Shown here piece after piece: positions 2,181 to 56,176 of a stretch of 56,176 bases of DNA. A program made the translations under genes and the position numbers. Source of the stretch: a virus; IMG/VR virus record IMGVR_UViG_3300048925_000598, positions 1 to 56,176 of that record; one strand, written 5' to 3'. The notes under the pieces are model-generated. The model ran no database searches, was not told where the DNA came from, and saw nothing but the letters and a program-made list of their open reading frames with translations. Every line of letters begins with the position of its first letter. Within the stretch, counting starts at the first letter, position 1.

Positions 2181-2449
2181 CGTGCCGCCTCATCAGCGAG
2201 GGCGGGGGCTGCTTCCCCGATCGTCTTTGCCTCGGGATCAATGCCAAGCTCGCGGCAAAGCCGGAACGAGTAAGTCGACCCCAGTCCGAACAATTCGCTG
2301 GCCAGCACCCAGTTTGGCGAGCGCTGGAATTTTCGCTTGCAGATGCGCCGGGCGTTCCTGAGGATGAGATGGAAGCTCCTGTTCGCCATGCATTCGTTGA
2401 AGCGGGCAGTTTCGACCGCCGCCCTCTCCTCGTCGGACAGCAAGGTCAT
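2177..2449 (-). CDS. Conserved-looking phage protein, 90 residues, function unknown
   Basis: A basic, mostly helical protein (MTLLSDEERAAVETARF...) with an Arg/Lys-rich stretch near residues 31-43 and no membrane segment or recognised motif. Both ends are fused to neighbours by ATGA overlaps: the methyltransferase stop upstream and the 41-residue membrane gene downstream. It therefore sits firmly within the leftward operon. The basic centre could contact nucleic acid, but that is a guess. Confidence 0.65.
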   Translation of the reverse strand: MTLLSDEERAAVETARFNECMANRSFHLILRNARRICKRKFQRSPNWVLASELFGLGSTYSFRLCRELGIDPEAKTIGEAAPALADEAAR

Positions 2450-3225
2450 GGCGTGGGCTCCCTGTGCGCGGCAAGGATCGCCTGGCCGATCAGCTCGGGA
2501 ATCTGCGGGACGACGGAATTGCCAATGGCCTTCAGTCTGGCAACGTCCAATTTGGAGGGAGCCCCATTAACCACTCGCTCCACATCGGGTTCGGAACCCC
2601 ACCAAGCCAACGATCCAGGGACACGCTCTTGTTCGTCTCGAAGTTCAGCGCCTCCACCGAGGTGCAGTTGCGGCGGATGTGGTCGGATGAAGTCGGCGTA
2701 GGAACGGAATGCGTCGCCTTCCCGGTGAGCGATGATCCAGAGCCGGTCACGACGGTGAGGCGCGCCAACATGGGCAGCGGGTATGCAATGCCACTCCGCA
2801 TCATAGCGGATCTCAGAGAGTGCCCCGAGAAGCGTTTCCAATCCGCGAGACCGAAGCTTTGAGACATTCTCAAGGATGACGACCCTTGGACGAAGCTCGC
2901 TGATAAGACGCATGGCATGGCGCCACAACCCGGTGCGCTCCCCGTCGATCCCCGAGCCTCGCCCTGCGATGGAGACGTCCTGGCAGGGGAAGCCGCCGCA
3001 GATAGCGTCAACGGCAATTCCGTCTGCTGCGAGTCGGACGGCAGTGAGTTCTCTGACATCTTCATAGATCGGAGTATCCGGCCAGTGCTTGCGAAGGACG
3101 CGGCGGGGGAAGGGCTCGATCTCGCAGAAGGCGACGGTCTTGAAGCCTCCGGAGCGTTCCAAGCCGAGCGAGAAGGCCCCGATGCCGCTGAACAGGTCGA
3201 GGAGGCGAAGGGGCTCACTCGGCAT
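2446..3225 (-). CDS. Orphan DNA (cytosine-5-)-methyltransferase
   Basis: A C5-cytosine methyltransferase that transfers a methyl group from S-adenosylmethionine. Motif I is DLFSGIGAFSLGLE (10-23) and motif IV is GGFPCQDVS with catalytic Cys81. Motif VI is ENV (119-121), motif VIII is HRRDRLWI (157-164) and motif X is IGNSVVPQIPELIG (234-247). At 259 residues it is shorter than most family members, mainly because the target-recognition region (about 165-230) is small. No restriction endonuclease lies nearby, so it is an orphan phage enzyme, probably protecting phage DNA from host restriction. It overlaps the upstream gene by 11 bases and the downstream gene as ATGA. Confidence 0.94.
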   Translation of the reverse strand: MPSEPLRLLDLFSGIGAFSLGLERSGGFKTVAFCEIEPFPRRVLRKHWPDTPIYEDVRELTAVRLAADGIAVDAICGGFPCQDVSIAGRGSGIDGERTGLWRHAMRLISELRPRVVILENVSKLRSRGLETLLGALSEIRYDAEWHCIPAAHVGAPHRRDRLWIIAHREGDAFRSYADFIRPHPPQLHLGGGAELRDEQERVPGSLAWWGSEPDVERVVNGAPSKLDVARLKAIGNSVVPQIPELIGQAILAAHREPTP

Positions 3226-10571: not shown

Positions 10572-11318
10572 ATGAATACTCGAAATCAGGGCGCGGTAGC
10601 AATCCAGCCCGAAGGCGGTCCACCGGAAGTCCAGATCGACCCGGTGCTCAACATGATCGAGCGCGCCGCTCGCGACGCCTCGGTCGATATCGACAAAATG
10701 GAACGCCTGCTGGCCATGCGGGAACGCGAGTTCGTTCGTGTCGCCGAAATGGCATTCAACTCCGCCATGAAGTCGGCACAGGCCGAAATGCCTCAGGTGG
10801 TCCGCGACGCCAAGAACGATCAGACAAGATCGCTGTACGCCAAGTATGAGACGATCAGCGAGGCTATCCAGCCGGTCATCACCAAGCACGGCTTCTTTCT
10901 CTCCTTCGGCGAGGACGATTGCCCGAAAGAGAACCACATCCGCATCGTCTGCGACGTGGGACACGAAGGCGGCCACACCCGGCGCTATCACGCGGATATC
11001 CCGATCGACAACGTCGGCATGAAGGGCAACGCCAACAAGACGGCGACGCACGCCTACGGCTCCACCAAGAGCTACGGCAAGCGCTACCTGAAATGCGACA
11101 TCTTCGATGTGGCGGTGAAGAGCCAGGACGACGACGGCAATGCCGCCGGCTCCGAGGTAGTGACGGCGGATCAGGTGGGCACGCTGGTCGAATTGCTCGA
11201 TAGCGTCGGCGCACCCAAGGACAAGTTCCTTGAATGGGCCAAGGTCGAGCGCCTCGCCGATATCCCCGCCAAGCATTTCCAGAAGTGCGTCGCCGCCATC
11301 AACTCGTACCAGGGGTGA
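10572..11318 (+). CDS. erf: ERF-family single-strand annealing recombinase
   Basis: A 248-residue protein of the ERF superfamily, which anneals complementary single strands in phage recombination and circularisation. The core (about 50-170) contains FNSAMKSAQAEMPQVVRDA, the tyrosine-rich YAKYETISEAIQPV, and later GSTKSYGKRYLKC. The start at 10572 has AGGA upstream; the longer frame from 10524 adds a non-conserved leader. The next gene is a YqaJ exonuclease, so the two form an exonuclease/annealing pair as in other phages. Confidence 0.9.
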   Translation: MNTRNQGAVAIQPEGGPPEVQIDPVLNMIERAARDASVDIDKMERLLAMREREFVRVAEMAFNSAMKSAQAEMPQVVRDAKNDQTRSLYAKYETISEAIQPVITKHGFFLSFGEDDCPKENHIRIVCDVGHEGGHTRRYHADIPIDNVGMKGNANKTATHAYGSTKSYGKRYLKCDIFDVAVKSQDDDGNAAGSEVVTADQVGTLVELLDSVGAPKDKFLEWAKVERLADIPAKHFQKCVAAINSYQG

Positions 11319-11323
11319 GCGCC

Positions 11324-12049
11324 ATGGAAGTGTTCACCTTCGAACAGAATTCGCCGGAATGGTATGCGGCTCGCGCCGGCATCCCGACTGCGTCAGAATT
11401 TTCGACGGTCCTTGCCGAGCCCAGAGCGGACGGCACACTGTCGCAGGGAGTCGTTGACGCAATGGTCAAGAGCGGCTGTTCCGCGGCGCAGCTTGCGGCG
11501 GCGGTGAAGGCCGCGAAGCGAAAGAACAGCAGCCCATCAGCAACCCGTCGCGCCTACATGCTCAAGCTCGCCGGGGAGATCATCACCGGCCTACCGTCCG
11601 AGAATTACTCCAATCAGGCCATGGATCGCGGGCACGTCATGGAGCCGGAGGCGCGCGACCTGTATGCCTTCACGCATCGCGCAGATCCGCAGCTCGTCGG
11701 CTTCATCCGCAACGGCGACAAGGGCGCCAGCCCTGATAGCCTGATCGGCGACGCCGGTATGCTGGAGATCAAAACCAAGGCGCCGCACCTTCTGATCGAA
11801 TGCCTGCTTCGCGACGAATTCCCGCCGGAGCACAAGGCGCAGTGCCAGGGCGCCCTATGGGTGGCCGAGCGCGAGTGGATCGACATCGCGGTCTATTGGC
11901 CTGGAATGCCGCTGTTCGTGAAGCGTGCCGGCCGTGACGAGCCGTACATCGCCAAGCTCTCCGACGCCGTCGACCAGTTCAACGCCGAACTGGCGGAAGT
12001 CGTCGAGCGCGTGCGCGGCTACGGTAAGCAAGCGCGGGAGGCGGCATAG
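11324..12049 (+). CDS. YqaJ-type lambda exonuclease family protein
   Basis: A 241-residue PD-(D/E)XK nuclease that resects double-stranded ends to give single strands to the ERF partner. Active-site residues are visible: Asp138 in GASPDSLIG, then Glu148-x-Lys150 in MLEIKTK, with an upstream Glu in RGHVMEPEAR (near 103-111). The start at 11324 gives the conserved opening FTFEQNSPEWYAARAGIPTA. It begins 5 bases after the ERF gene. Confidence 0.93.
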   Translation: MEVFTFEQNSPEWYAARAGIPTASEFSTVLAEPRADGTLSQGVVDAMVKSGCSAAQLAAAVKAAKRKNSSPSATRRAYMLKLAGEIITGLPSENYSNQAMDRGHVMEPEARDLYAFTHRADPQLVGFIRNGDKGASPDSLIGDAGMLEIKTKAPHLLIECLLRDEFPPEHKAQCQGALWVAEREWIDIAVYWPGMPLFVKRAGRDEPYIAKLSDAVDQFNAELAEVVERVRGYGKQAREAA

Positions 12050-15097: not shown

Positions 15098-15360
15098 GCC
15101 GCTCCACCATCACCCAGATGCAGAGCGCGCTGACGACCTTGGTGGACATGCGCGCCTCCGACCGCCTTCACCAATGCAAGGCGCTGAAGCTGTCCGAGTC
15201 TCAGTTGCTCGGCCATCAGATCAAGGACGCGCGCGACTTCGTGGCGGCTCTCGCGCGGCACCCAGAGCTAGTCCAGGCGATCCTTCGTGGGGAGAAGCTC
15301 GTCCCTGCCAGCATGGCTATCCACGCCGCACAGCAGATGGCCAACGAGGGCATGGAATGA
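15094..15360 (+). CDS. Phage protein of unknown function, 88 residues
   Basis: A helical, soluble protein starting MSRSTITQMQSALTTLVDM. It overlaps the gene before and the MT-A70 gene after by 4 bases each. No cysteine cluster, membrane segment or known motif. Confidence 0.55.
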   Translation: MSRSTITQMQSALTTLVDMRASDRLHQCKALKLSESQLLGHQIKDARDFVAALARHPELVQAILRGEKLVPASMAIHAAQQMANEGME

Positions 15361-15959
15361 GCACGTGGCCCTTTGGCAATCTCCAGATGTTTGGGTTCGA
15401 CCTTGTCGACGTCGACCCGCCATGGCCGTTCGAACTGTACTCGGCCAAGGGCGATGAGAAGTCGGCATCGGCTCAGTACAAGGTCATGACACTCGACGAT
15501 ATCGCGGCGCTTCCGGTCGGCGATCTGCTCGCCCCCGGAGGAATGGTCATCATGTGGACGACGTGGCCTTTGGTGGCCATCGGCGCCCATGTGCGTGTCA
15601 TCCAGGGCTGGGGTCTACGCGCCGTGACGGGCGGAGGCTGGGCCAAGCGGACGGCCTCCGGAAAGCTGCGGTGGGGCACCGGCTATGCCGCGCGCTCGCT
15701 GCACGAGCCCTACATCATCGCCACGCTCCCCGGCACCGCGTGGAACGGCGCTTCATTCCCCAACATCGTTGAGACGATGGAGGCCGATTCGCTCGACGGC
15801 TTGGCGCGCGAGCATTCCCGCAAGCCGGACGAGTTCTATGCGCGCTGCGAAGCCGCGTGGCCCGATGCCCGGCGTGCGTCGTTGTTCAGTCGGCAGTCCC
15901 GGCCGGGCTGGACGGTGTGGGGCGATGAGGCCACCAAGTTCGATGGGGTGGCCGCATGA
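15357..15959 (+). CDS. MT-A70 family adenine-N6 DNA methyltransferase
   Basis: A 200-residue methyltransferase. The catalytic motif DVDPPWPF (about 18-25) has the DPPW form of the MT-A70 family. It is followed by GGMVIMWTTWPLV, the region ARSLHEPYIIATLPG, and HSRKPDEFYARCEAAWPDA, which are typical of phage members. It probably methylates adenine in DNA to protect the phage genome or to mark its origin. No cognate endonuclease is nearby. With the cytosine methylase near 2446 it makes a second orphan modification enzyme in the same phage. Confidence 0.9.
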   Translation: MSTWPFGNLQMFGFDLVDVDPPWPFELYSAKGDEKSASAQYKVMTLDDIAALPVGDLLAPGGMVIMWTTWPLVAIGAHVRVIQGWGLRAVTGGGWAKRTASGKLRWGTGYAARSLHEPYIIATLPGTAWNGASFPNIVETMEADSLDGLAREHSRKPDEFYARCEAAWPDARRASLFSRQSRPGWTVWGDEATKFDGVAA

Positions 15960-33245: not shown

Positions 33246-35728
33246 TGGCACGCATTCCTGACGTTCGGGATCTAGGCCCACGTGGCCCTATTCGTGTCGG
33301 GGCGGCTATCGCCACGATCGACAATGCTGGGGCAGTGGGGCGCGCCGCTGCGCGGTTTGGCCAGCGCGTCGCCGATGTCGGAGAGCAGTACCGGCACGAT
33401 CAGGAAACTCTCGAGAATGTCGAGACCAGCAAAAACCTAACGACGTTCCTCGACGGGCAAGGCGCCAAGCAGATCGAGAGCGAGCGCGGCGCCGATCCGA
33501 CTGGGAAGGACTTCGTCAAGGGGCGCATGCAGGCGTTCGACAAGGATGCCGGCGATTTCCTGAAGAACGTCTCCCCACGTCTTCGGCCGGTCATTGATGC
33601 CAAGCTCCAGGCGGCTCGAGGTGATTATTCGCTCAAGTCGCTCGGCTTCGAATTGAAGCAGCGGGACGGCTATTACCGCACTGAGGCCGGCAAGATGGGT
33701 GAGCGGGCGCAGGCCGGTATCCTGGCTGATCCCGACAACGCTTCCGGCTATGAGAAGGATTTCCGCACGTTCGTCGATGAAACCGGCCTGCCGGACACCG
33801 ACAAGACCGCGTTAAAGGAAAAGGCAGGCGACGTTTTCAGGCAGGCCCGCGTTCGCGGTCTCGTCGATGCGGGCCGTGATGCCGAAGCTTATGGAGCAGC
33901 GGGCGGCGCGGGCGATACCAAGACCCAGACCAAGGCCCTACTGCGCCGTTTCGAGGGCTTCAAGGAGACGCCGTATTACGACGTGAACGCTCACCGCGCG
34001 GGCTACGGCTCCGACACCACCACGCTGCCTGATGGCACTGTGGTCAGCGTCACGGCGGACACCAAGGTCTCGCGTGATGATGCGGAGCGGGATCTGGACC
34101 GCCGCGTTGGCGAGTTCCAAGGCAAGGTTCGCGGACAGGTCGGGCCGGAGAAGTTCGACGCGCTCCCGGCCAATGTGCAGGCCGTGCTGAATAGCGTCGG
34201 CTACAACTATGGGGAACTGCCGGCTGGTGTCGCCGCTGCGGCCAAGACTGGTGACCCTCAGCAGATCGCGGCGGCCATTCGCGCCCGCGGTAGTGACAAT
34301 GAGGGCGTGAATGCCAAGCGGCGCAATGCCGAGGCAGACTATGTGCTTGCCGGCACGGATCGCATGGTAGGGGAGGAGACCGCAGGCGACTATACCGAGA
34401 AACTGATCGCCGATCGCAATGCGCGCGAGCGGCGCGCGGATGCGACCGTTGCCGCTCAACTGGCGGCGAACAACAAGGCCAAGGTCAACCAACTCGAACT
34501 CGACGTGCTCGATGGCAAGGCTGGCGTGACGGATGTCGATGACGCCCGCCAGGCTGGATGGCTGACAGATGCTACGGATGTCGGCCGAATCCAGACCGCG
34601 ATTAACAAGCGCAATGAGGAGACGGGCGCTCTTGCTCGTGTGACGAGTGGGCGGCCGTTGAACCAGTTCAATGCGGACGACAAGAAGGCTGTCGGGAGTG
34701 CCTACACCGGATTGATCCGCGGCGGGGCTGATCCGTTGCAGGCGTTGGATACGGTGTATTCCAAGACCGGCATTCTCCCGCAGGAAGCGGTGCAGGGACT
34801 GCGAGGCGCCATGGTGCGTCCCGATACGGCCGAACAGGGGCTGCAACTCGCGTCGGCCCTGATGATCAAGACGCCGAACGTGTTCGATGGCTATGACGGC
34901 GGCGAGGGGATCGCGCGGGATGCGGTCGCGTTCCAGCACTATGTCGAACTCGGTGTTCCGCCGCAGGAAGCCGCCGGGCGCGTCCTCACGATGAATTCGC
35001 CTGAATACAAGTCGAAGGTGAAGCTCTCCGACGCCGAGATGGCGGATTATCGGAAGACCATCAAGCCCGAGACCGTGCAGAATGCCTTTGGCCTCGCGCC
35101 GTGGCTTGGTTCGAATACCCCGCTCGGCTTCGATGGGCAGCAGCAGCGCGCAATCGTCCAGGATTTTGCGGACATTGCGGCCGATGAATTCCGCAGGACC
35201 GGAGACGCTTCGCTCGCGAACGACTATGCCGCCAGGGAGCTAAAGCGGGTCTATGGCACAACCAATGCCGCCGGCCAGCAGACCTTCGTGAAGTATCCGC
35301 CGGAGCAGGCCAAGGGCTATCCGCCGGTTCGGGATGAGAATGGTGAGCCCACGCAGGCCTATATCTATGATCAAGCCGCGGCCGAGGCCTCCAAGTTCAC
35401 CGGGAAGGAAGTGAAGGCAGGCGACGTTGTTCTGGCTCACATCCCGAACGTGACGTCTCGCGATTGGAATTCTGGCGCCCCGCCGCGGTATCGGCTGATG
35501 TGGCTGGATCGATCGCAAAATCCGCCGCGTCTCGAAAGCGTACCGGACCAAGCATTCGTTGCTGACCCGGCCGCAGGTCAGAAGGCGTGGGACGACAAGT
35601 ATGCCGAAGCTATGCGCACTGGGAAGCCAATCGAGAAGGACCGCGGCATCCTCGGCAACATGCTGTACAATGTGGCCGCCGATCGGAAGGTCAACATCAT
35701 GACCGGCCAATCCTTGGGGAATGAGTGA
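33245..35728 (+). CDS. Large internal virion protein with GH24-type lysozyme domain
   Basis: An 827-residue protein thought to be ejected with the genome and to open the peptidoglycan. Residues about 228-375 form a phage-lysozyme-like domain: catalytic Glu237 in RRFEGFKETPYYD, Asp246, then GYGSDTTTLPDGT. The residue matching the usual catalytic Thr appears to be Ala252, which is odd. Most of the rest is helical. It lies in the place of T7 gp15/gp16-type genes. The start at 33245 overlaps the upstream stop. Confidence 0.85.
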   Translation: MARIPDVRDLGPRGPIRVGAAIATIDNAGAVGRAAARFGQRVADVGEQYRHDQETLENVETSKNLTTFLDGQGAKQIESERGADPTGKDFVKGRMQAFDKDAGDFLKNVSPRLRPVIDAKLQAARGDYSLKSLGFELKQRDGYYRTEAGKMGERAQAGILADPDNASGYEKDFRTFVDETGLPDTDKTALKEKAGDVFRQARVRGLVDAGRDAEAYGAAGGAGDTKTQTKALLRRFEGFKETPYYDVNAHRAGYGSDTTTLPDGTVVSVTADTKVSRDDAERDLDRRVGEFQGKVRGQVGPEKFDALPANVQAVLNSVGYNYGELPAGVAAAAKTGDPQQIAAAIRARGSDNEGVNAKRRNAEADYVLAGTDRMVGEETAGDYTEKLIADRNARERRADATVAAQLAANNKAKVNQLELDVLDGKAGVTDVDDARQAGWLTDATDVGRIQTAINKRNEETGALARVTSGRPLNQFNADDKKAVGSAYTGLIRGGADPLQALDTVYSKTGILPQEAVQGLRGAMVRPDTAEQGLQLASALMIKTPNVFDGYDGGEGIARDAVAFQHYVELGVPPQEAAGRVLTMNSPEYKSKVKLSDAEMADYRKTIKPETVQNAFGLAPWLGSNTPLGFDGQQQRAIVQDFADIAADEFRRTGDASLANDYAARELKRVYGTTNAAGQQTFVKYPPEQAKGYPPVRDENGEPTQAYIYDQAAAEASKFTGKEVKAGDVVLAHIPNVTSRDWNSGAPPRYRLMWLDRSQNPPRLESVPDQAFVADPAAGQKAWDDKYAEAMRTGKPIEKDRGILGNMLYNVAADRKVNIMTGQSLGNE

Positions 35729-38700
35729 TGCCGCTCGTTCCAGTCGGATATGACCAGCTTGCCGCGATCCCGCGACTAGATATTCCGAGAGAGCCGGTAA
35801 CACCGGATGAGCAATCGGCAGCGGAAGCTGCCCGCCCTTCGCTGGGCGACACTATCGCCGCCTCGTTCCGAAGTCAGAATGAGGTTGCGTCCGTCATCAG
35901 CCGTGCGGACATCCCTGACCCGTCTCAGGTCGAGGATGGGTTTAATGTGTACGCATACAATAAGGGAACCTCATACGAGGCTGAGGACGCCTTCGACGAT
36001 GTGCATAACCAGCGCGCGGCTGATGCGCTGAGACGCCAGGTCGATCAAGAACGCGAGGACAACAAAACCCGAGCAGCGTCCGGTTGGGTAGGGGTGGCGT
36101 CCGACATCGGTGCGGGTCTTTTCTCGCCGACGATCCTGCTGCCCGGCGGCGCAGTCTACAAGGGCGCCAAGACGGGATACTCGATCGCCAAAACCGCTGC
36201 GACCACTGCTGGCGCCGCTATCGCTGGAGCTGCCGTCCAAGAGGGTGTGCTTCAAGCTTCGCAGGAAACGCGCTCAGCAGAGGAAACCGCGTTCACGCTT
36301 GGCGCCAGCGCGCTGTTGGGCGGGTTCATTGGCGGCGGAACCGCTGCAATCCTGTCCCGAGCTGAGCGCAAGGCGGCAGAGAGGGCGGTTGCCAGCCTCA
36401 CTGGCGAGACGGCCCCATTCGGCGCATCCGGCGGCGCGGCTGCGGTGTCTGATATCGGGGTTGGCGACCTGGACATTTCCGGCCGCGCGGCGAGCGCCGT
36501 AGCTGGGGCAACATCGCAGCTAAATCCGGTGCTGCGTTTGAACACCTCGCCGTCGCTGAGCGCGAGGCTTTACGGCCAGCAGCTCGGCGAGAACAGCCTT
36601 TATCAGGCCGGTAATGATCTCGGTATCACGGCCGGTCCATCAGTCGAGCGTCTTGCCAAGCAGACCTTTGAAGGCCGCATCTATCGTGCGGAGCGCGGTC
36701 TCGACGAGGATTTCCGTGCCATGCGCAAGGCCGGGATCAATATGACCCGGACTGACTTCGAAGAGGCTGTCGGGCGCGCCATGAGGCACGAGGATGTTGG
36801 TGACAATGAATTCGTGTCTCGCTCGGCCTCGCGGTATCGATCCGAGCTGATCGAGCCGTACAAGGCCGAGGGCATACAGGCCGAATTGCTGCCTGAGAAC
36901 GTGAAAACGGACACTGCGGACAGCTATCTGCATCGAGCTTGGGATTTCCAGCGGCTTACCGCCGGCGAGACCAAGTTCAAGGATATCGTCAAGGGCTGGG
37001 CGGGCGACAACGCCAAGATCGAGGTCGACCGTCTTCAGGAAACCGCCACCCGCCGCTCGGCTCGCATCGATCAGGAAATAGCTGATCTGAAGATGTCGCC
37101 GGAGGATCGCCGGCTTGCTCTTTGGCATATTGATGCAGCGTTGAAAGATGGTGGTCTAGCCCCGCAGGACGCCGCGCGGTTGAAGCAACAGCGGCGCCGC
37201 ATCCGGTTCAATATCGCGGGCTCCTCGGATGAGATCAGCCGTCTTAATCAGCGGCTGGTCGAGACGGATGAGGACAATATTGGGCGCCTACGTCGCATGT
37301 CGGCCGGCGTTCGAAATATTGAAACCAAGGTCGACCGGCTCGACCCGGCCGATTATGCCGCCGCGATCACTGATCTGAATGGCCAGTTCAATGAGATCCT
37401 CAGTCGCAGCAATGCCGCCAATGACCGGCTGAAGCGTTTCTTGGAGCGCTCCGAAGGGGGCGACGTTGCCGATAGATTGGTCCGCGAACAAAGCGCCGAG
37501 GCTGGGCGTATCGAAGATCTGAACCGCATCGCCCGGCGCCTAGACGATATGGAATCGGTTGACCCGGAAGAGGCTATAGCCGAACTGCGGAAGCTAATCG
37601 ATGATCGCCTGGAGGAGACGCTACAGCGGGTCACCAAGGCCAACGAAGAGGCGGCCCGCATCAAGGAGCGGATCGAGCAGCTAAATCCAGAACGGCTGGA
37701 GGCGCGGATCAAGGATCTGGAGACGCGGAAGCGCGACATCTCCGACCGCCTTAAGGAGCGGGTCGATCTGAAATTCGATGCGCCGAATGCCTATGCCGCT
37801 TATGCAAAGGAGGTCGCTGATCTTGTCTATGACAAGCTGACCGGCCGCGCTAATGACGGGTCGTTGGCAGGCTTGAGCATTACGATGGGGCCTCGCGGGC
37901 CATTGAAGGAGCGCACCTTCAATATCCCAGATGCCTTGGTCGAGGATTTCCTGAACAACAACATTGTCGAGGTCGGTCGACGGTATGGGCGCCTTATGAG
38001 CGCCGACGTGGAACTGACGAGACGCTTTGGCAATATTGACCTGCGCGACCAGCGGGCGAAGGTGACGGACGAATACCGATCCCTGCGCGAGCGCGCGGCG
38101 CAGGCGAATTCTCTCGCTGAGCTTCGGGAGATCACCGGCAAGGGGTTCAAGGTGGAGGGGTTGCGCGAGAGAGCGGGCATCGCCAACACCATTGAGCGCC
38201 AGCGTGAACTTGCACTTGAACATCTGGCGGGGCGCGAGAAATCCGACCTTGCCGACCTTGATGGGCTTCGAGACCTGATCCGCGGCAACTACGGAAACAA
38301 CAACCCGGATGCCCTCTGGAGCCGGGTGACACGGGCGGCAGCACAGTTCAACTATCTGCGCCTGATGGGTGGCGTAGTGGTCGCGTCGCTTGGCGACATC
38401 TACCGGCCCGCGATGGTGCATGGCCTGGCGCCGTTCCTTCAGGATGGCATTCGGCCGCTGCTGACCGCCGCCGGCCGAGCGGCGCGCGGGATGTCGATCG
38501 AGGAAGCCCGCCGCTTCGGCTTGGTTGTCGAGCGCTATACCCAAGGCCGACTGGCGACCTTCGCGGAGATTGGCGACCCGTATAAGCGAGGCACCTCAGT
38601 CGAGCGGTTGCTTGAGAACGGCACGCGAGTCGGCTCGCGCTGGAACGGAATTCTGCTCTGGACCGATGCCATGAAGGGCATCAGCTCGGTGATATCTCAG

Positions 38701-39537
38701 AACCGGATCATCCGCGGGCTGAAGGGGGAGGGGGATACTCGGTTCCTGGCCTATCTCGGCCTCAACCCGGAAATGCGCGCGAGGATCAAGGATCAGCTTG
38801 GCGCCCACGCCGAGGAACTGGACGGGGTATGGATCGCGCATTCTGATCGCTGGACCGACACCGAAGCGGCCAGGCACTACGGCGCCGCGCTCGGAAAGGA
38901 CGTTGACAGCGTCATCACGACGAAGTCGGTCGGAGATGTGCCCCTATTTGCCAACACACCGACCGGGCGGCTGTTGCTCCAGTTTAAGTCGTTCGCGCTC
39001 GCCTCCCATCAAAAGGTTCTGCTGCGTGGCCTACAGGAGAGCCCGACCAACTTCATATCGGGCATGGTCGGGATGTCCGCGCTCGGCATGCTCGCGGCCT
39101 ATGCAAGGGCTTGGCGGGGCGGCGAAGATCGCATGAAGCGCTTCAGCGAGGCCGCTGAGAATCCCGGCTATTTGATTGGCGAAGCCCTCGACCTCACGGG
39201 TATATTTGCGGTACCCATGGAGGCTGCGAACACGTTTGAGAAGGTGGCCGGCGTCAATCCCGTGAAGGATCCATTGAAGCGCATGTTCCCCGGCACCAGC
39301 CAGGCGGGCTCGTCGTTGCGGTATCAATCGCGCGGCGTGGCCTCGACCTTCCTTGGACCGTCGGCCGGCCTGATCGATGTCGCGTCTGAGGTTGCCAAAC
39401 TTTCGGCCATGACCGCAGCGGGCGAAGCGACCACCGGGCAGAAGAAACGCCTTGCAGATCAGGCGGTGCAACTCGTGCCCTATTACAGCTATCCGGGCAT
39501 GCGCGAGATGGTGAACCTCTTGAGGAGTGGCGATTGA
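35728..39537 (+). CDS. Giant internal virion protein
   Basis: A 1269-residue protein. The N-terminal third has two hydrophobic Gly/Ala-rich segments (about 150-215, AAIAGAAVQEG and LGASALLGGFIGGGTAAIL). The middle (about 430-760) is a long coiled coil rich in Glu, Arg, Asp and Leu. The C-terminal part has a membrane-prone stretch (ISGMVGMSALGMLAAYARAW). Size and helical nature match gp16-like ejection proteins that span the periplasm in podoviruses. No enzymatic motif is recognised. Confidence 0.8.
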   Translation: MPLVPVGYDQLAAIPRLDIPREPVTPDEQSAAEAARPSLGDTIAASFRSQNEVASVISRADIPDPSQVEDGFNVYAYNKGTSYEAEDAFDDVHNQRAADALRRQVDQEREDNKTRAASGWVGVASDIGAGLFSPTILLPGGAVYKGAKTGYSIAKTAATTAGAAIAGAAVQEGVLQASQETRSAEETAFTLGASALLGGFIGGGTAAILSRAERKAAERAVASLTGETAPFGASGGAAAVSDIGVGDLDISGRAASAVAGATSQLNPVLRLNTSPSLSARLYGQQLGENSLYQAGNDLGITAGPSVERLAKQTFEGRIYRAERGLDEDFRAMRKAGINMTRTDFEEAVGRAMRHEDVGDNEFVSRSASRYRSELIEPYKAEGIQAELLPENVKTDTADSYLHRAWDFQRLTAGETKFKDIVKGWAGDNAKIEVDRLQETATRRSARIDQEIADLKMSPEDRRLALWHIDAALKDGGLAPQDAARLKQQRRRIRFNIAGSSDEISRLNQRLVETDEDNIGRLRRMSAGVRNIETKVDRLDPADYAAAITDLNGQFNEILSRSNAANDRLKRFLERSEGGDVADRLVREQSAEAGRIEDLNRIARRLDDMESVDPEEAIAELRKLIDDRLEETLQRVTKANEEAARIKERIEQLNPERLEARIKDLETRKRDISDRLKERVDLKFDAPNAYAAYAKEVADLVYDKLTGRANDGSLAGLSITMGPRGPLKERTFNIPDALVEDFLNNNIVEVGRRYGRLMSADVELTRRFGNIDLRDQRAKVTDEYRSLRERAAQANSLAELREITGKGFKVEGLRERAGIANTIERQRELALEHLAGREKSDLADLDGLRDLIRGNYGNNNPDALWSRVTRAAAQFNYLRLMGGVVVASLGDIYRPAMVHGLAPFLQDGIRPLLTAAGRAARGMSIEEARRFGLVVERYTQGRLATFAEIGDPYKRGTSVERLLENGTRVGSRWNGILLWTDAMKGISSVISQNRIIRGLKGEGDTRFLAYLGLNPEMRARIKDQLGAHAEELDGVWIAHSDRWTDTEAARHYGAALGKDVDSVITTKSVGDVPLFANTPTGRLLLQFKSFALASHQKVLLRGLQESPTNFISGMVGMSALGMLAAYARAWRGGEDRMKRFSEAAENPGYLIGEALDLTGIFAVPMEAANTFEKVAGVNPVKDPLKRMFPGTSQAGSSLRYQSRGVASTFLGPSAGLIDVASEVAKLSAMTAAGEATTGQKKRLADQAVQLVPYYSYPGMREMVNLLRSGD

Positions 39538-53511: not shown

Positions 53512-53736
53512 TCACTTGGCGCCGCTGGTCTCACTCGTTGAGGCCGGCGGCGCTGCTTTCGTTTCGAACATCGCCACTGCCTCCCTGACACATGTCTCGC
53601 AGTAATCCGCGGCCTCATATTCGCCGATGGTGACGAGCCTATCTGACTGCTGATAGCAGCCGTGGCAACTCAGTTTGGCCCCCGCGTCTGCGACTAGGAG
53701 CCTGACATATTTGGGCCGGAAGGACATGGCGCTCAC
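53512..53736 (-). CDS. Small zinc-ribbon phage protein
   Basis: A 74-residue protein with CHGC (about 24-27) and CETC (about 46-49), two CxxC pairs as in small zinc ribbons. A polar tail rich in Pro, Ser and Thr follows. The ATG overlaps the upstream gene by 4 bases. Function unknown. Confidence 0.6.
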   Translation of the reverse strand: MSAMSFRPKYVRLLVADAGAKLSCHGCYQQSDRLVTIGEYEAADYCETCVREAVAMFETKAAPPASTSETSGAK

Positions 53737-53936
53737 TTCCCCCTCCTATGCTCTGCCAGTGCGGCGCGGCCGGCGTCTTCCAGCGCCCAACCCTTCTTGC
53801 CGTATCGAGCGAGGCCGGCCTTGCGGAGCTTCTGACGAGCCTGGTTCTGCTCCTCGGTGCCGCAGGGCAATCCTCTCCTGAAGGTCGGGCCGACCCGCTC
53901 CAACGCTTCGAGGAATTGATATTGTTCGGCGTCCAT
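53733..53936 (-). CDS. Phage protein of unknown function, winged-helix-like
   Basis: A 67-residue protein starting MDAEQYQFLEALERVGP with a possible winged-helix core (QARQKLRKAGLARYGKKGWA) and a basic end. GGAGGG just upstream supports 53936; 53939 is an alternative. Its start overlaps the upstream stop. Confidence 0.55.
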   Translation of the reverse strand: MDAEQYQFLEALERVGPTFRRGLPCGTEEQNQARQKLRKAGLARYGKKGWALEDAGRAALAEHRRGK

Positions 53937-54199
53937 CATCCCTCCTTCTCCTCTATGAGAGCGGAGGGGGTGGCCAGCCAATCAGCAAAAACGTACCAAG
54001 GGTCGCCGGGCTCGGCGCCGTATTCATCATCCTCGCCGTCCTGGTCAGGATCGAAGCCACCAGGCTTCGGGACGATGAGCCCGAGTTTCTCGGCGGCGTC
54101 CTGAACAACGTCGCCATTCTCACAGCCCTCCCAAGCTTCGCGGATGCGCGCGCGGGCAAACTCTTTGAGACTTTCTAACTGTTCAGCTGTGAGGCCCAT
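53936..54199 (-). CDS. Acidic phage protein, 87 residues
   Basis: It starts MGLTAEQLESLKEFARARIR, then an acidic middle (DPDQDGEDDEYGAEPGDPWY) with a YVFADWL end. I recall similar accessory proteins from alphaproteobacterial phages, without known function. The start at 54199 overlaps the last codon of the split gene as TGATG; AGGAG lies upstream in that gene's surviving 3' end, so the insertion kept this coupling signal. Confidence 0.55.
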   Translation of the reverse strand: MGLTAEQLESLKEFARARIREAWEGCENGDVVQDAAEKLGLIVPKPGGFDPDQDGEDDEYGAEPGDPWYVFADWLATPSALIEEKEG

Positions 54200-54248
54200 C
54201 ACTCCATCTCCTTCTGTAGATATTTGGTGCTTCCCCTTGCGAACGCAG

Positions 54249-54271
54249 TGCCGAATGGTAGAATCTCGGCA
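54249..54271 (+). promoter_or_regulatory. Hairpin at the left side of the tnpB element, touching its start codon
   Basis: TGCCGA (54249-54254) pairs with TCGGCA (54266-54271) around 11 bases. The last base of the stem is the first base of the tnpB ATG. It may be the left-end hairpin of an IS200/IS605-type element, a translation block, or both. Confidence 0.5.
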
Positions 54272-55470
54272 TGATTCATCGCGGTTTCCGCTTTCGTCTC
54301 TATCCCACAGATGAGCAGCAGGCCGCGTTTCGGCACTTCTCTGGAGTGTGCCGTCTGGTCTATAATCTTGCTCTTGAGCAGCGCCGCGATTGGAACAAGC
54401 AATACGTAGCCGCTACCGGACGGCCGCTGAATTTCTGCCAGCAGTCCAGCGAGCTTACTCAGCTGCGCGTCGAGTTCGATTTCATCGCCGCGGTTACGCG
54501 TACATGTCTCCAAGAATCGCTGCGCGATCTGGACACGGCCTTTCGGAAGTTCTTCTCCGGGCGCGCCAGATATCCGACCCCGAGAAAAAAGGGTGTCGAT
54601 GACCGGTTTCGTTTCATGGGGAGGGAGATCGGCCTTCGATCTCTCAACGCCAAGTGGGGGTGCGTTCGTCTGCCGAAGATCGGTTGGATAAAATTCCGCC
54701 AGTCGCGCGCACTCCGCGGAGAAATCAAAACCGTCACCATCTCCTATGACGCGCTTGGGTGGCACGTATCGTTCGGGTGCGCGATTGAACACGAGCCGCC
54801 TACGAATATCTGCCCGTCTGTTGGCATTGACCGCGGCGTGGCCCAGACCCTCACCTTCTCTACCGGAGAGAGCCTTTCGATCCCCGCCAGCCTTGAGACG
54901 ATAGATCGGCGCTATCGGAATGCGCAGCGCACGCTTTCCCGCCGTAAACGGGGGTCTAAGCGCCGGCTGAAAGCACTCCGTCGGGTAGCTTCCATCAGCG
55001 CCAGGCGTGCGCGCGTGCGCCTTGATTGGCAGCACAAGGCATCGGCGGGCATAGTTGGCCGCTTCGGCACTGTGGTGCTGGAGGACCTGAAGGTTAAAAG
55101 GATGACGGCTGCAGGCGTCGGTACCGGTGCCGGCCAGAAGGCGGGTCTCAACCGCGGAATCCTGAACCAGGGATGGAGCGCCTTCGCGACGCTGCTTGCC
55201 TACAAGCTTGAAGAACGCGGGGGAGGGCTCATTCTCGTCGATCCCGCCTATACCTCGCAGACGTGTTCGGAATGCGGAGTCGTGGACAGGGAGAGCCGCA
55301 AGAGCCAAGCGGTTTTCGCCTGCCAGCATTGCGGCTTCCGTGCCCATGCCGACCACAACGCTGCGATCAACATCTTGCGCCGGAACACGGCGTCTATGCG
55401 CGTGGAGGGGGTGCCTTTTGCCCCCTATGAAACGCGAACTGTAAACGCCGCTCGCGCGGCGGGATGTTAA
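54271..55470 (+). CDS. tnpB: TnpB, RNA-guided nuclease of an IS200/IS605-type element
   Basis: A 399-residue TnpB, the Cas12-like nuclease guided by an RNA made from the element's 3' end. An N-terminal helix-turn-helix (about 1-50) leads to a RuvC nuclease with Asp187 in GIDRGV, Glu271 in VLEDLKV and Asp361 in ADHNAAINIL. The zinc ribbon has CSEC (332-335) and CQHC (351-354). All catalytic residues are intact and the length is normal. No TnpA transposase gene lies in the window, so the element cannot move on its own. No proper ribosome site precedes the ATG. Confidence 0.93.
   Translation: MIHRGFRFRLYPTDEQQAAFRHFSGVCRLVYNLALEQRRDWNKQYVAATGRPLNFCQQSSELTQLRVEFDFIAAVTRTCLQESLRDLDTAFRKFFSGRARYPTPRKKGVDDRFRFMGREIGLRSLNAKWGCVRLPKIGWIKFRQSRALRGEIKTVTISYDALGWHVSFGCAIEHEPPTNICPSVGIDRGVAQTLTFSTGESLSIPASLETIDRRYRNAQRTLSRRKRGSKRRLKALRRVASISARRARVRLDWQHKASAGIVGRFGTVVLEDLKVKRMTAAGVGTGAGQKAGLNRGILNQGWSAFATLLAYKLEERGGGLILVDPAYTSQTCSECGVVDRESRKSQAVFACQHCGFRAHADHNAAINILRRNTASMRVEGVPFAPYETRTVNAARAAGC
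55446..55461 (+). ncRNA. Right-end hairpin, expected part of the TnpB guide (omega) RNA
   Basis: CGCCGC (55446-55451) and GCGGCG (55456-55461) form a 6-bp stem with a TCGC loop within the last codons of tnpB. In known systems the scaffold of the guide RNA comes from the 3' end of tnpB and the right end, and the guide is the sequence just past the element. The RNA limits cannot be set by eye. Confidence 0.45.
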
Positions 55471-55528
55471 CTGTTCATCAGGAGGGGTTGTTGTCCGCTC
55501 AGTCTCGGCGGCCACCCTCTCGATCATG

Positions 55529-56176
55529 TCAGGCTTGTTCATGGGGTGCTCCTGCATTGGTCCCGACATCCTTCAGAGCCGCATCGCGAGCGGCGTTGAG
55601 TTCGGCCATGGCGTCGTGCGATCCGCCGGGGCGGTCGGGATGCCGTTCTTTCGACAGACGGCGATATGCGGCGTCTATGTTCTCGGCAACGACCGGGCCG
55701 CTGGTGATAATGCCGAGCACATCTCGCCATGGACGCTTGGCGCCGGGCGGCGGCAATGCGGCAAAGCCGGTGAACATCTCGGCTACCGACGCGACCCCGT
55801 GGCGCTCAATCTTCCTCGTCGCCTCGATATGCGCAGCCACCGCCGCGATATTGTCAGCCACTCGGTCATAGGTGTCGCACGGCATGCAATGCGGCTTACC
55901 GGCGAGTTGAAAATAGACGGCTACGCCGGGGTCAATCGGCTCCGACTGCCCGCTGCGCGGGAGACCGTTGAGCTTCAATTCGAGGTTCGAGGACAGGACC
56001 GGTAGGCGGGCGCCTAGCGCCGCCAGTTCGCCCTGAAGCCGAGTGACCGCCTCGCTGATCGTCAGCTTGGTCTTGGAGCCGGTTCGACCCGTTGTGCCGA
56101 ATGACGCTGATTTACGCAGCGTCTTGCGCGGGCGTCCGGCAGGCCATTGAAGAGGATAGGCCTGGGTCTCGCTCAC
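55529..56176 (-). CDS. Phage J-domain protein (DnaJ-like), at the window edge
   Basis: A 215-residue protein beginning with GTG at the edge (SETQAYPLQWPAGRPRKT), an opening common in alphaproteobacterial phages, so it is probably complete. The C-terminus (about 148-205) is a J domain: WRDVLGIITSG ... IDAAYRRLSKERHPDRPGG with the HPD motif that stimulates Hsp70 ATPase. The middle part has conserved VLSSNLELKLNGLPR and DPGVAVYFQLAGKPH. It may recruit host DnaK for phage replication or assembly. Confidence 0.85.
   Translation of the reverse strand: MSETQAYPLQWPAGRPRKTLRKSASFGTTGRTGSKTKLTISEAVTRLQGELAALGARLPVLSSNLELKLNGLPRSGQSEPIDPGVAVYFQLAGKPHCMPCDTYDRVADNIAAVAAHIEATRKIERHGVASVAEMFTGFAALPPPGAKRPWRDVLGIITSGPVVAENIDAAYRRLSKERHPDRPGGSHDAMAELNAARDAALKDVGTNAGAPHEQA

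What the first reader, a model, noticed from the sequence alone, without database searches (positions are those of the whole stretch)
54199..55542. tnpB element inserted in a phage gene could target uninterrupted siblings
TnpB is intact (RuvC Asp187, Glu271, Asp361; zinc ribbon) and sits inside a small accessory gene. In the known mechanism the guide is the sequence just beyond the right end, here the 5' part of the split gene. A superinfecting relative carrying the intact gene would hold the matching target, so the element could act as a homing or superinfection-exclusion device. No tnpA is present, so keeping tnpB needs another reason.
Basis: partly seen in the sequence, partly recalled or inferred. 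Interest (0 to 1): 0.75.

Follow-up and report, generated by a model that had tools for sequence, protein, structure and literature searches.

The report
Immobile RNA-guided nuclease in a phage
A temperate bacterial virus carries an intact RNA-guided DNA cutter (TnpB), left from a jumping gene that has lost its jumping parts, and its built-in guide points at the viral gene it interrupts; it could therefore cut relatives with the uninterrupted gene, but no such relative is in the databases and nobody has tested it.

Summary
tnpB (54271-55470, +) is full length, with RuvC residues D187/E271/D361 and all four zinc cysteines intact, and the record has no tnpA. Comparison with relatives fixes the right end at GATGTTAA (55470), so the guide is 55471 onward, antisense to codons 18-24 of a small minus-strand gene. 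The omega-RNA core helix is kept and covaries across relatives; tnpB keeps its own leaderless promoter.

New here: this copy shows neither TnpA-type end hairpin. A left-end model that finds held-out mobile relatives finds nothing at this locus, and the right-end hairpin is shortened. The same loss recurs among phage copies (at least 6 label changes on the tree) while catalysis stays intact, and dN/dS is about 0.09-0.16 in one wholly end-less clade.

The sibling-targeting idea follows from published TnpB biochemistry and plasmid gene-drive work, but is untested here: no uninterrupted sibling or guide target was found in IMG/VR, phage or plasmid collections. That the element splits one gene is plausible (TCAC motif, in-frame 112-aa join) but unproven.

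Verdict: a real, probably functional, immobilised tnpB cassette. Homing or exclusion of siblings is the best explanation, not demonstrated.

The parts
54271..55470 (+). tnpB, RNA-guided nuclease, 399 aa, RuvC D187/E271/D361 and CxxC...CxxC zinc ribbon intact
54237..54264 (+). promoter TTGCGA-16-TAGAAT; the tnpB start codon lies 7 nt downstream, so the message would be leaderless; the same arrangement is seen by eye in relatives L021, L022 and L071
   Evidence: 2 found in the region, 0.5 expected; sequences
55399..55470 (+). 3' part of the omega-RNA scaffold: core helix CGCG 55399-55402 / CGCG 55433-55436, short terminal hairpin 55446-55461, conserved tip GGATGTTAA 55462-55470 (right end)
55471..55490 (+). 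guide CTGTTCATCAGGAGGGGTTG (about 16-20 nt), antisense to codons 18-24 of the interrupted gene
   Evidence: right-end boundary from relatives; guide rule from PMC8612924
55471..55542 (-). 5' part of the interrupted small gene, MNKPDMIERVAAETERTTTPPDEQ; start codon overlaps the DnaJ-like gene
54199..54202 (+). candidate target/transposon-adjacent motif TCAC; left ends of relatives follow TCAT or TCAC
54203..54236 (+). left stretch without the left-end hairpin seen in mobile relatives; the exact left junction is either 54202/54203 or lies in 54216-54236
53936..54202 (-). 88-aa ORF: either the 3' part of the interrupted gene or a separate gene with its own ribosome site
   Evidence: no family match
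55529..56176 (-). neighbouring DnaJ-like phage gene (phrog_9210), upstream in the accessory operon

Best explanation
This is an immobilised IS200/IS605-type tnpB cassette in a temperate phage, probably of alphaproteobacteria. It keeps the promoter, nuclease gene, omega-RNA scaffold and right-end tip (shown by sequence) and has lost tnpA and both detectable TnpA hairpins (shown by model search). It should make an omega-RNA whose guide is the first 16-20 nt right of 55470 (inferred from the ISDra2 mechanism). TnpB should cut DNA carrying TCAY followed by that sequence, that is, alleles of the phage gene without the insertion (inferred). In mixed infection, or in a lysogen met by a relative, the cut would either destroy the relative or be repaired by copying the cassette into it (inferred; the phage carries a YqaJ/RecE-like exonuclease that could help). 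Retention through this drive or exclusion explains why the nuclease stays intact after mobility is gone.
For: Intact nuclease and zinc ribbon. Right end and guide defined by more than 25 relatives. Core omega-RNA helix covaries: 15 distinct combinations, 80% paired versus 61% in shuffles, 0 of 5000 as high, although four rows of one clade do not fit this register; the window pairs CGCG/CGCG. Promoter kept. Left-end model R1 finds held-out mobile copies L050 (67 bits) and L056 (45 bits), but at the window locus its best score is 6.5 bits with filters off. Right-end TnpA-type hairpin in 12 of 13 copies with a left end but 2 of 23 without, Fisher p 9e-7. Left end or tnpA kept in 11 of 14 plasmid copies but 9 of 32 viral ones, p 0.003. 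At least 6 independent changes of left-end state on the tree. dN/dS 0.09-0.16 within the wholly end-less clade L055/L057/L059/L063. Natural parallel: the guide of phage copy L059 matches 18/18 nt in phage L063, exactly at the right-end boundary, and L063 lacks the insertion there. Temperate phage: integrase and exonuclease. TnpB homing and plasmid gene drive are published.
Against: No sibling, empty site or guide target was found. No RNA or cleavage data. The target motif is inferred from relatives, and in the L059/L063 pair the bases before the match are GTCCC, not TCAY, so cutting there is not assured. The right-end hairpin differs from mobile relatives, so scaffold activity is assumed. The window branch itself has no close relative to test for selection after loss of the ends; window-L021 dN/dS 0.24 rests on dS about 1.1.
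Confidence: 0.5

Rival explanations
1. Decaying insertion-sequence remnant: tnpB landed in a dispensable accessory gene, lost its ends recently and is kept only because too little time has passed.
For: No sibling with an empty site is known; accessory location; left end absent.
Against: Open frame, all catalytic residues, promoter and paired core helix are intact; in other end-less phage lineages the nuclease stays under purifying selection.
Confidence: 0.27
2. Still a mobile tnpB-only element (IS1341-like) with diverged ends, moved in trans by a host TnpA: target TCAC at 54199-54202, element 54203-55470.
For: TCAC is the only TCAY between 54121 and 54275 and gives an in-frame join of the flanks; the 68-bp distance from TCAC to tnpB is of the order of the about 92 bp in tnpB-only relatives.
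Against: Neither end carries the TnpA-type hairpin that mobile relatives share between left and right ends; no tnpA in the record; a TCAY plus frame match by chance has a probability of about 0.1 by my estimate.
Confidence: 0.18
3. Repurposed guide system with another target, such as RNA-guided regulation or defence, as in phage TldR.
For: Phages do carry domesticated TnpB relatives with guides (TldR, PMC13418256).
Against: TldRs are nuclease-dead; here D187/E271/D361 are intact. The guide matches nothing else in the window even with 3 mismatches, and the host genome is not known.
Confidence: 0.05

Closest known systems
ISDra2 TnpB (IS200/IS605), structures 8bf8, 8ex9, 8exa
   Same: Same domain order and RuvC triad, zinc ribbon, guide taken from the right-flank DNA; phmmer E 8e-36 over residues 3-372
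   Different: ISDra2 has tnpA, both end hairpins and TTGAT; here no tnpA, no TnpA-type hairpins, motif inferred as TCAY
IS605-type element of Methylovirgula sp. HY1 plasmid pHY1 (L021)
   Same: Closest TnpB found (66%); same right-end tip GATGTTAA and promoter layout
   Different: Divergent tnpA and canonical left and right hairpins present
tnpB of Komagataeibacter phages phiKX1/phiKX2 (L027)
   Same: Phage-borne, tnpB-only, same right-end family
   Different: 50% identity; both end hairpins kept, so potentially mobile in trans
IS200/IS605 TnpB gene drive on plasmids (PMC11870625)
   Same: Proposed mode of action: cleavage of copies lacking the insertion
   Different: Shown for plasmids and an IS; not shown for phages or for an end-less cassette
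TldR phage RNA-guided repressors (PMC13418256)
   Same: Phage-borne TnpB descendant with guide
   Different: Nuclease-dead there, nuclease residues intact here

Membership tests
TnpB RNA-guided nuclease | Family model match over the whole protein | tested here: met
   NF040570 guided_TnpB 267 bits, cut-off 100; three Pfam domains
TnpB RNA-guided nuclease | RuvC D-E-D triad and zinc ribbon | tested here: met
   D187, E271, D361 and four Cys invariant; aligned to ISDra2 TnpB
TnpB RNA-guided nuclease | Omega-RNA scaffold at the 3' end of tnpB, adjoining the guide | tested here: met
   Covarying core helix and conserved tip in relatives and window; expression not tested
TnpB RNA-guided nuclease | RNA-guided, motif-dependent DNA cleavage | not testable with these tools
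   Needs biochemistry or plasmid interference
Mobile IS200/IS605 or IS1341-type element | tnpA in cis (IS605) or none (IS1341) | tested here: met
   No Y1_Tnp in the record: fits IS1341-type only
Mobile IS200/IS605 or IS1341-type element | Left-end TnpA hairpin next to the target motif | tested here: not met
   Model R1, filters off, best 6.5 bits near tnpB; no strong hairpin
Mobile IS200/IS605 or IS1341-type element | Right-end TnpA hairpin | tested here: not met
   Replaced by a shorter GC hairpin; no R1 hit at the window right end
Mobile IS200/IS605 or IS1341-type element | Insertion 3' of the family target motif with a clean empty site | tested here: inconclusive
   TCAC present and join in frame; no empty-site sibling found
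Homing or superinfection-exclusion device | Relative holding target plus motif, cut by TnpB | tested here: inconclusive
   No relative found for this phage; parallel pair L059/L063 holds the target but not TCAY
TldR | Inactivated RuvC | tested here: not met
   Triad intact

The most novel reading that the evidence does not exclude
Phages of this lineage repeatedly turn tnpB into a non-transposing but nuclease-active, self-programming weapon: the cassette keeps only promoter, tnpB and omega-RNA, is guided by its own insertion site, and spreads by cutting and converting, or excluding, sibling phages.
Probability: 0.3. Interest if true: 0.75.

Novelty: new variant of a known kind. Interest (0 to 1): 0.52.

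Why it matters
Lone tnpB genes are common and why they persist is an open question. Here is a phage clade in which loss of the transposition ends and retention of the nuclease can be scored copy by copy, with a predicted target written beside each copy. If end-less phage tnpB cassettes cut uninterrupted siblings, they would be RNA-guided counterparts of phage homing endonucleases, and a plausible step between transposon nucleases and antiviral Cas12.

Tried and rejected
Chance or GC artefact: rejected for tnpB (family scores, invariant residues). The 456-aa minus-strand ORF 54199-55569 is rejected as an antisense artefact of a GC-rich gene.

The 10-bp repeat TAACTGTTCA (54179 and 55468) as a target duplication: rejected, because half of it is the conserved right-end tip and the other half is flank, and IS200/IS605 elements make no duplication (general knowledge).

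Damage by the 6-residue gap relative to close relatives (just after G284): not supported, because ISDra2 TnpB is also shorter there.

Rfam: no omega-RNA family matched. Empty-site searches with the 88-aa ORF, the DnaJ-like gene, the terminase (best 54%), the guide and the degenerate intact-gene pattern all gave no sibling. The predicted empty site of phage phiKX1 also gave 0 hits. The genome-contig scan with tnpB found only relatives of about 30% identity. The 24-aa fragment was too short for a relative search. No structure was predicted, because sequence membership was already clear.

Full report
What is there. The window is the whole of one IMG/VR virus record of 56,176 bases. Its tyrosine integrase (854-1876), YqaJ/RecE-like exonuclease (11234-12049), terminase, head-tail adaptor, major head and podovirus-like internal virion genes mark a temperate tailed phage. 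Near its right end a minus-strand accessory operon runs from a DnaJ-like gene (55529-56176, phrog_9210) through small genes of no known family. A plus-strand tnpB (54271-55470) interrupts that operon.

The protein. tnpB encodes 399 aa and matches the guided_TnpB model at 267 bits (cut-off 100) and three Pfam domains. The nearest relatives are on Rhizobiales and other alphaproteobacterial plasmids (66% Methylovirgula, 62% Rhizobium) and in viral contigs (up to 64%). D187, E271, D361 and the four zinc cysteines are invariant and align with ISDra2 TnpB.

Right end and guide. In relatives the element ends in a hairpin followed by GATGTTAA, after which the flanks are unrelated. That puts the right end here at 55470 and the guide at CTGTTCATCAGGAGGGGTTG, antisense to codons 18-24 (TTPPDEQ) of the small gene that begins at 55542. 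The omega-RNA core upstream forms a helix that changes by compensation between copies (CGCA/UGCG, AUCG/CGAU, GACG/CGUC, CUCG/CGAG, UUCG/CGAA; window CGCG/CGCG). Over 15 distinct combinations 80% of positions pair, against 61% in shuffles, and 0 of 5000 shuffles reach that. Shuffling does not remove relatedness, and four rows of one clade (L055, L057, L059, L063) do not fit this register. By itself the window stretch folds only modestly better than shuffled sequence (z -1.9).

Promoter. TTGCGA, 16 nt, TAGAAT at 54237-54264 places transcription at or next to the start codon. L021, L022 and L071 have the same layout (read by eye). The cassette therefore still carries what it needs to be expressed.

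Lost ends. In mobile relatives the left end follows TCAT or TCAC and carries a hairpin with a TTCAG-type loop; the right end carries the same kind of hairpin. A covariance model of the left end (R1) finds the two mobile copies left out of its training, L050 at 67 bits and L056 at 45 bits, and also picks up most canonical right-end hairpins. It finds nothing at the window locus: with filters off over 53700-54300 the best score is 6.5 bits, and its stray hits elsewhere in the window are weak and far away. The window right end has a short GC hairpin in place of the canonical one. So neither TnpA recognition hairpin is detectable, and no Y1 transposase is encoded. A strongly diverged left end cannot be fully excluded.

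Is that unusual? In this clade a left end or tnpA is kept by 11 of 14 plasmid copies but only 9 of 32 viral copies (Fisher p 0.003). Right-end hairpins go with left ends: 12 of 13 against 2 of 23 (p 9e-7). These tests treat copies as independent, which they are not fully. On the tree the left-end label needs 8 changes, at least 6 of them forced by well-supported branches, so loss has happened many times. All 57 relatives whose catalytic residues were checked keep D-E-D. In the clade L055/L057/L059/L063, where no member has a left end, pairwise dN/dS is 0.09-0.16, and in these comparisons the shared stretch starts at about the tnpB start codon. This argues that the nuclease is kept after transposition is lost, provided the loss predates their split. 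For the window itself the test is weak: dN/dS 0.24 against L021 with dS about 1.1.

Does it split a gene? Two readings remain. (A) The element is 54203-55470, inserted after TCAC; the joined flanks then read MNKPDMIERVAAETERTTTPPDEQ-VMGLTAEQLESLKEF... as one 112-aa protein. The Val codon GTG followed by A is what a TCAC motif demands. TCAC is the only such motif between 54121 and 54275, but a motif in frame would turn up by chance about one time in ten (my estimate). (B) The 88-aa ORF is a separate gene with its own ribosome site (AAGGAG at 54209-54214, like its operon neighbours); the left junction lies in 54216-54236, and the left end plus the rest of the interrupted gene were deleted. I lean slightly to B. 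In both readings the guide is the same.

Can it target siblings? By published rules TnpB with this guide should cut TCAY plus guide (PMC8612924), and a TnpB gene drive against copies lacking the IS is reported for plasmids (PMC11870625). For this phage no sibling is available: the guide has no exact match in IMG/VR, none of note in INPHARED or PLSDB, one chance-level 13/14 match in 43 related records, and the predicted intact gene is not found. The tools may withhold near-identical records. A parallel case exists: the guide of L059 matches L063 for 18 of 18 nt starting exactly at the right-end boundary, and 27 nt left of the L059 insertion region match the sequence just before it, so L063 holds the uninterrupted counterpart. 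The bases before the match are GTCCC rather than TCAY, so cleavage there is uncertain.

Most likely mechanism. Shown: intact nuclease gene, promoter, scaffold, guide position, lost mobility parts, recurrence in phages. Inferred: omega-RNA production, TCAY-dependent cutting, and either conversion or elimination of siblings during mixed infection or superinfection. A transient remnant is the main rival.

Novelty. TnpB, its homing role and its drive on plasmids are known; lone tnpB genes are known. I found no paper in the held library on nuclease-intact phage tnpB cassettes that have lost both end hairpins, but most subscription papers are missing from that library. I therefore call it a new variant of a known kind, with moderate interest that would rise if cleavage of siblings were shown.

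Noticed in passing
L059:1052-2759 and L063:3495-3538: Two phage records in which the L059 tnpB region (with an HTH gene) sits in a stretch that is uninterrupted in L063; 27 nt and 18 nt flank matches meet at one point in L063. A natural pair for testing guide and motif.
   Followed up: partly
L052, L053, L058, L061, L069, L075, L078: End-less viral tnpB copies whose right end reads GGGGATGTTAA or GGGGATGCTGA-like after a short hairpin, as in the window; may be a subtype with a shortened omega-RNA end.
   Followed up: partly
L050:1-56: The viral contig starts exactly at the first base of an IS605-type left end, probably an assembly break at a repeated insertion sequence.
   Followed up: no
window 2446-3225 and 15174-15959: Two DNA methyltransferases (C5-cytosine and MT-A70 type) in one phage.
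   Followed up: no
window 35725-39537: 1270-aa internal virion protein with endolysin domain match, in a phage that also carries an integrase.
   Followed up: no
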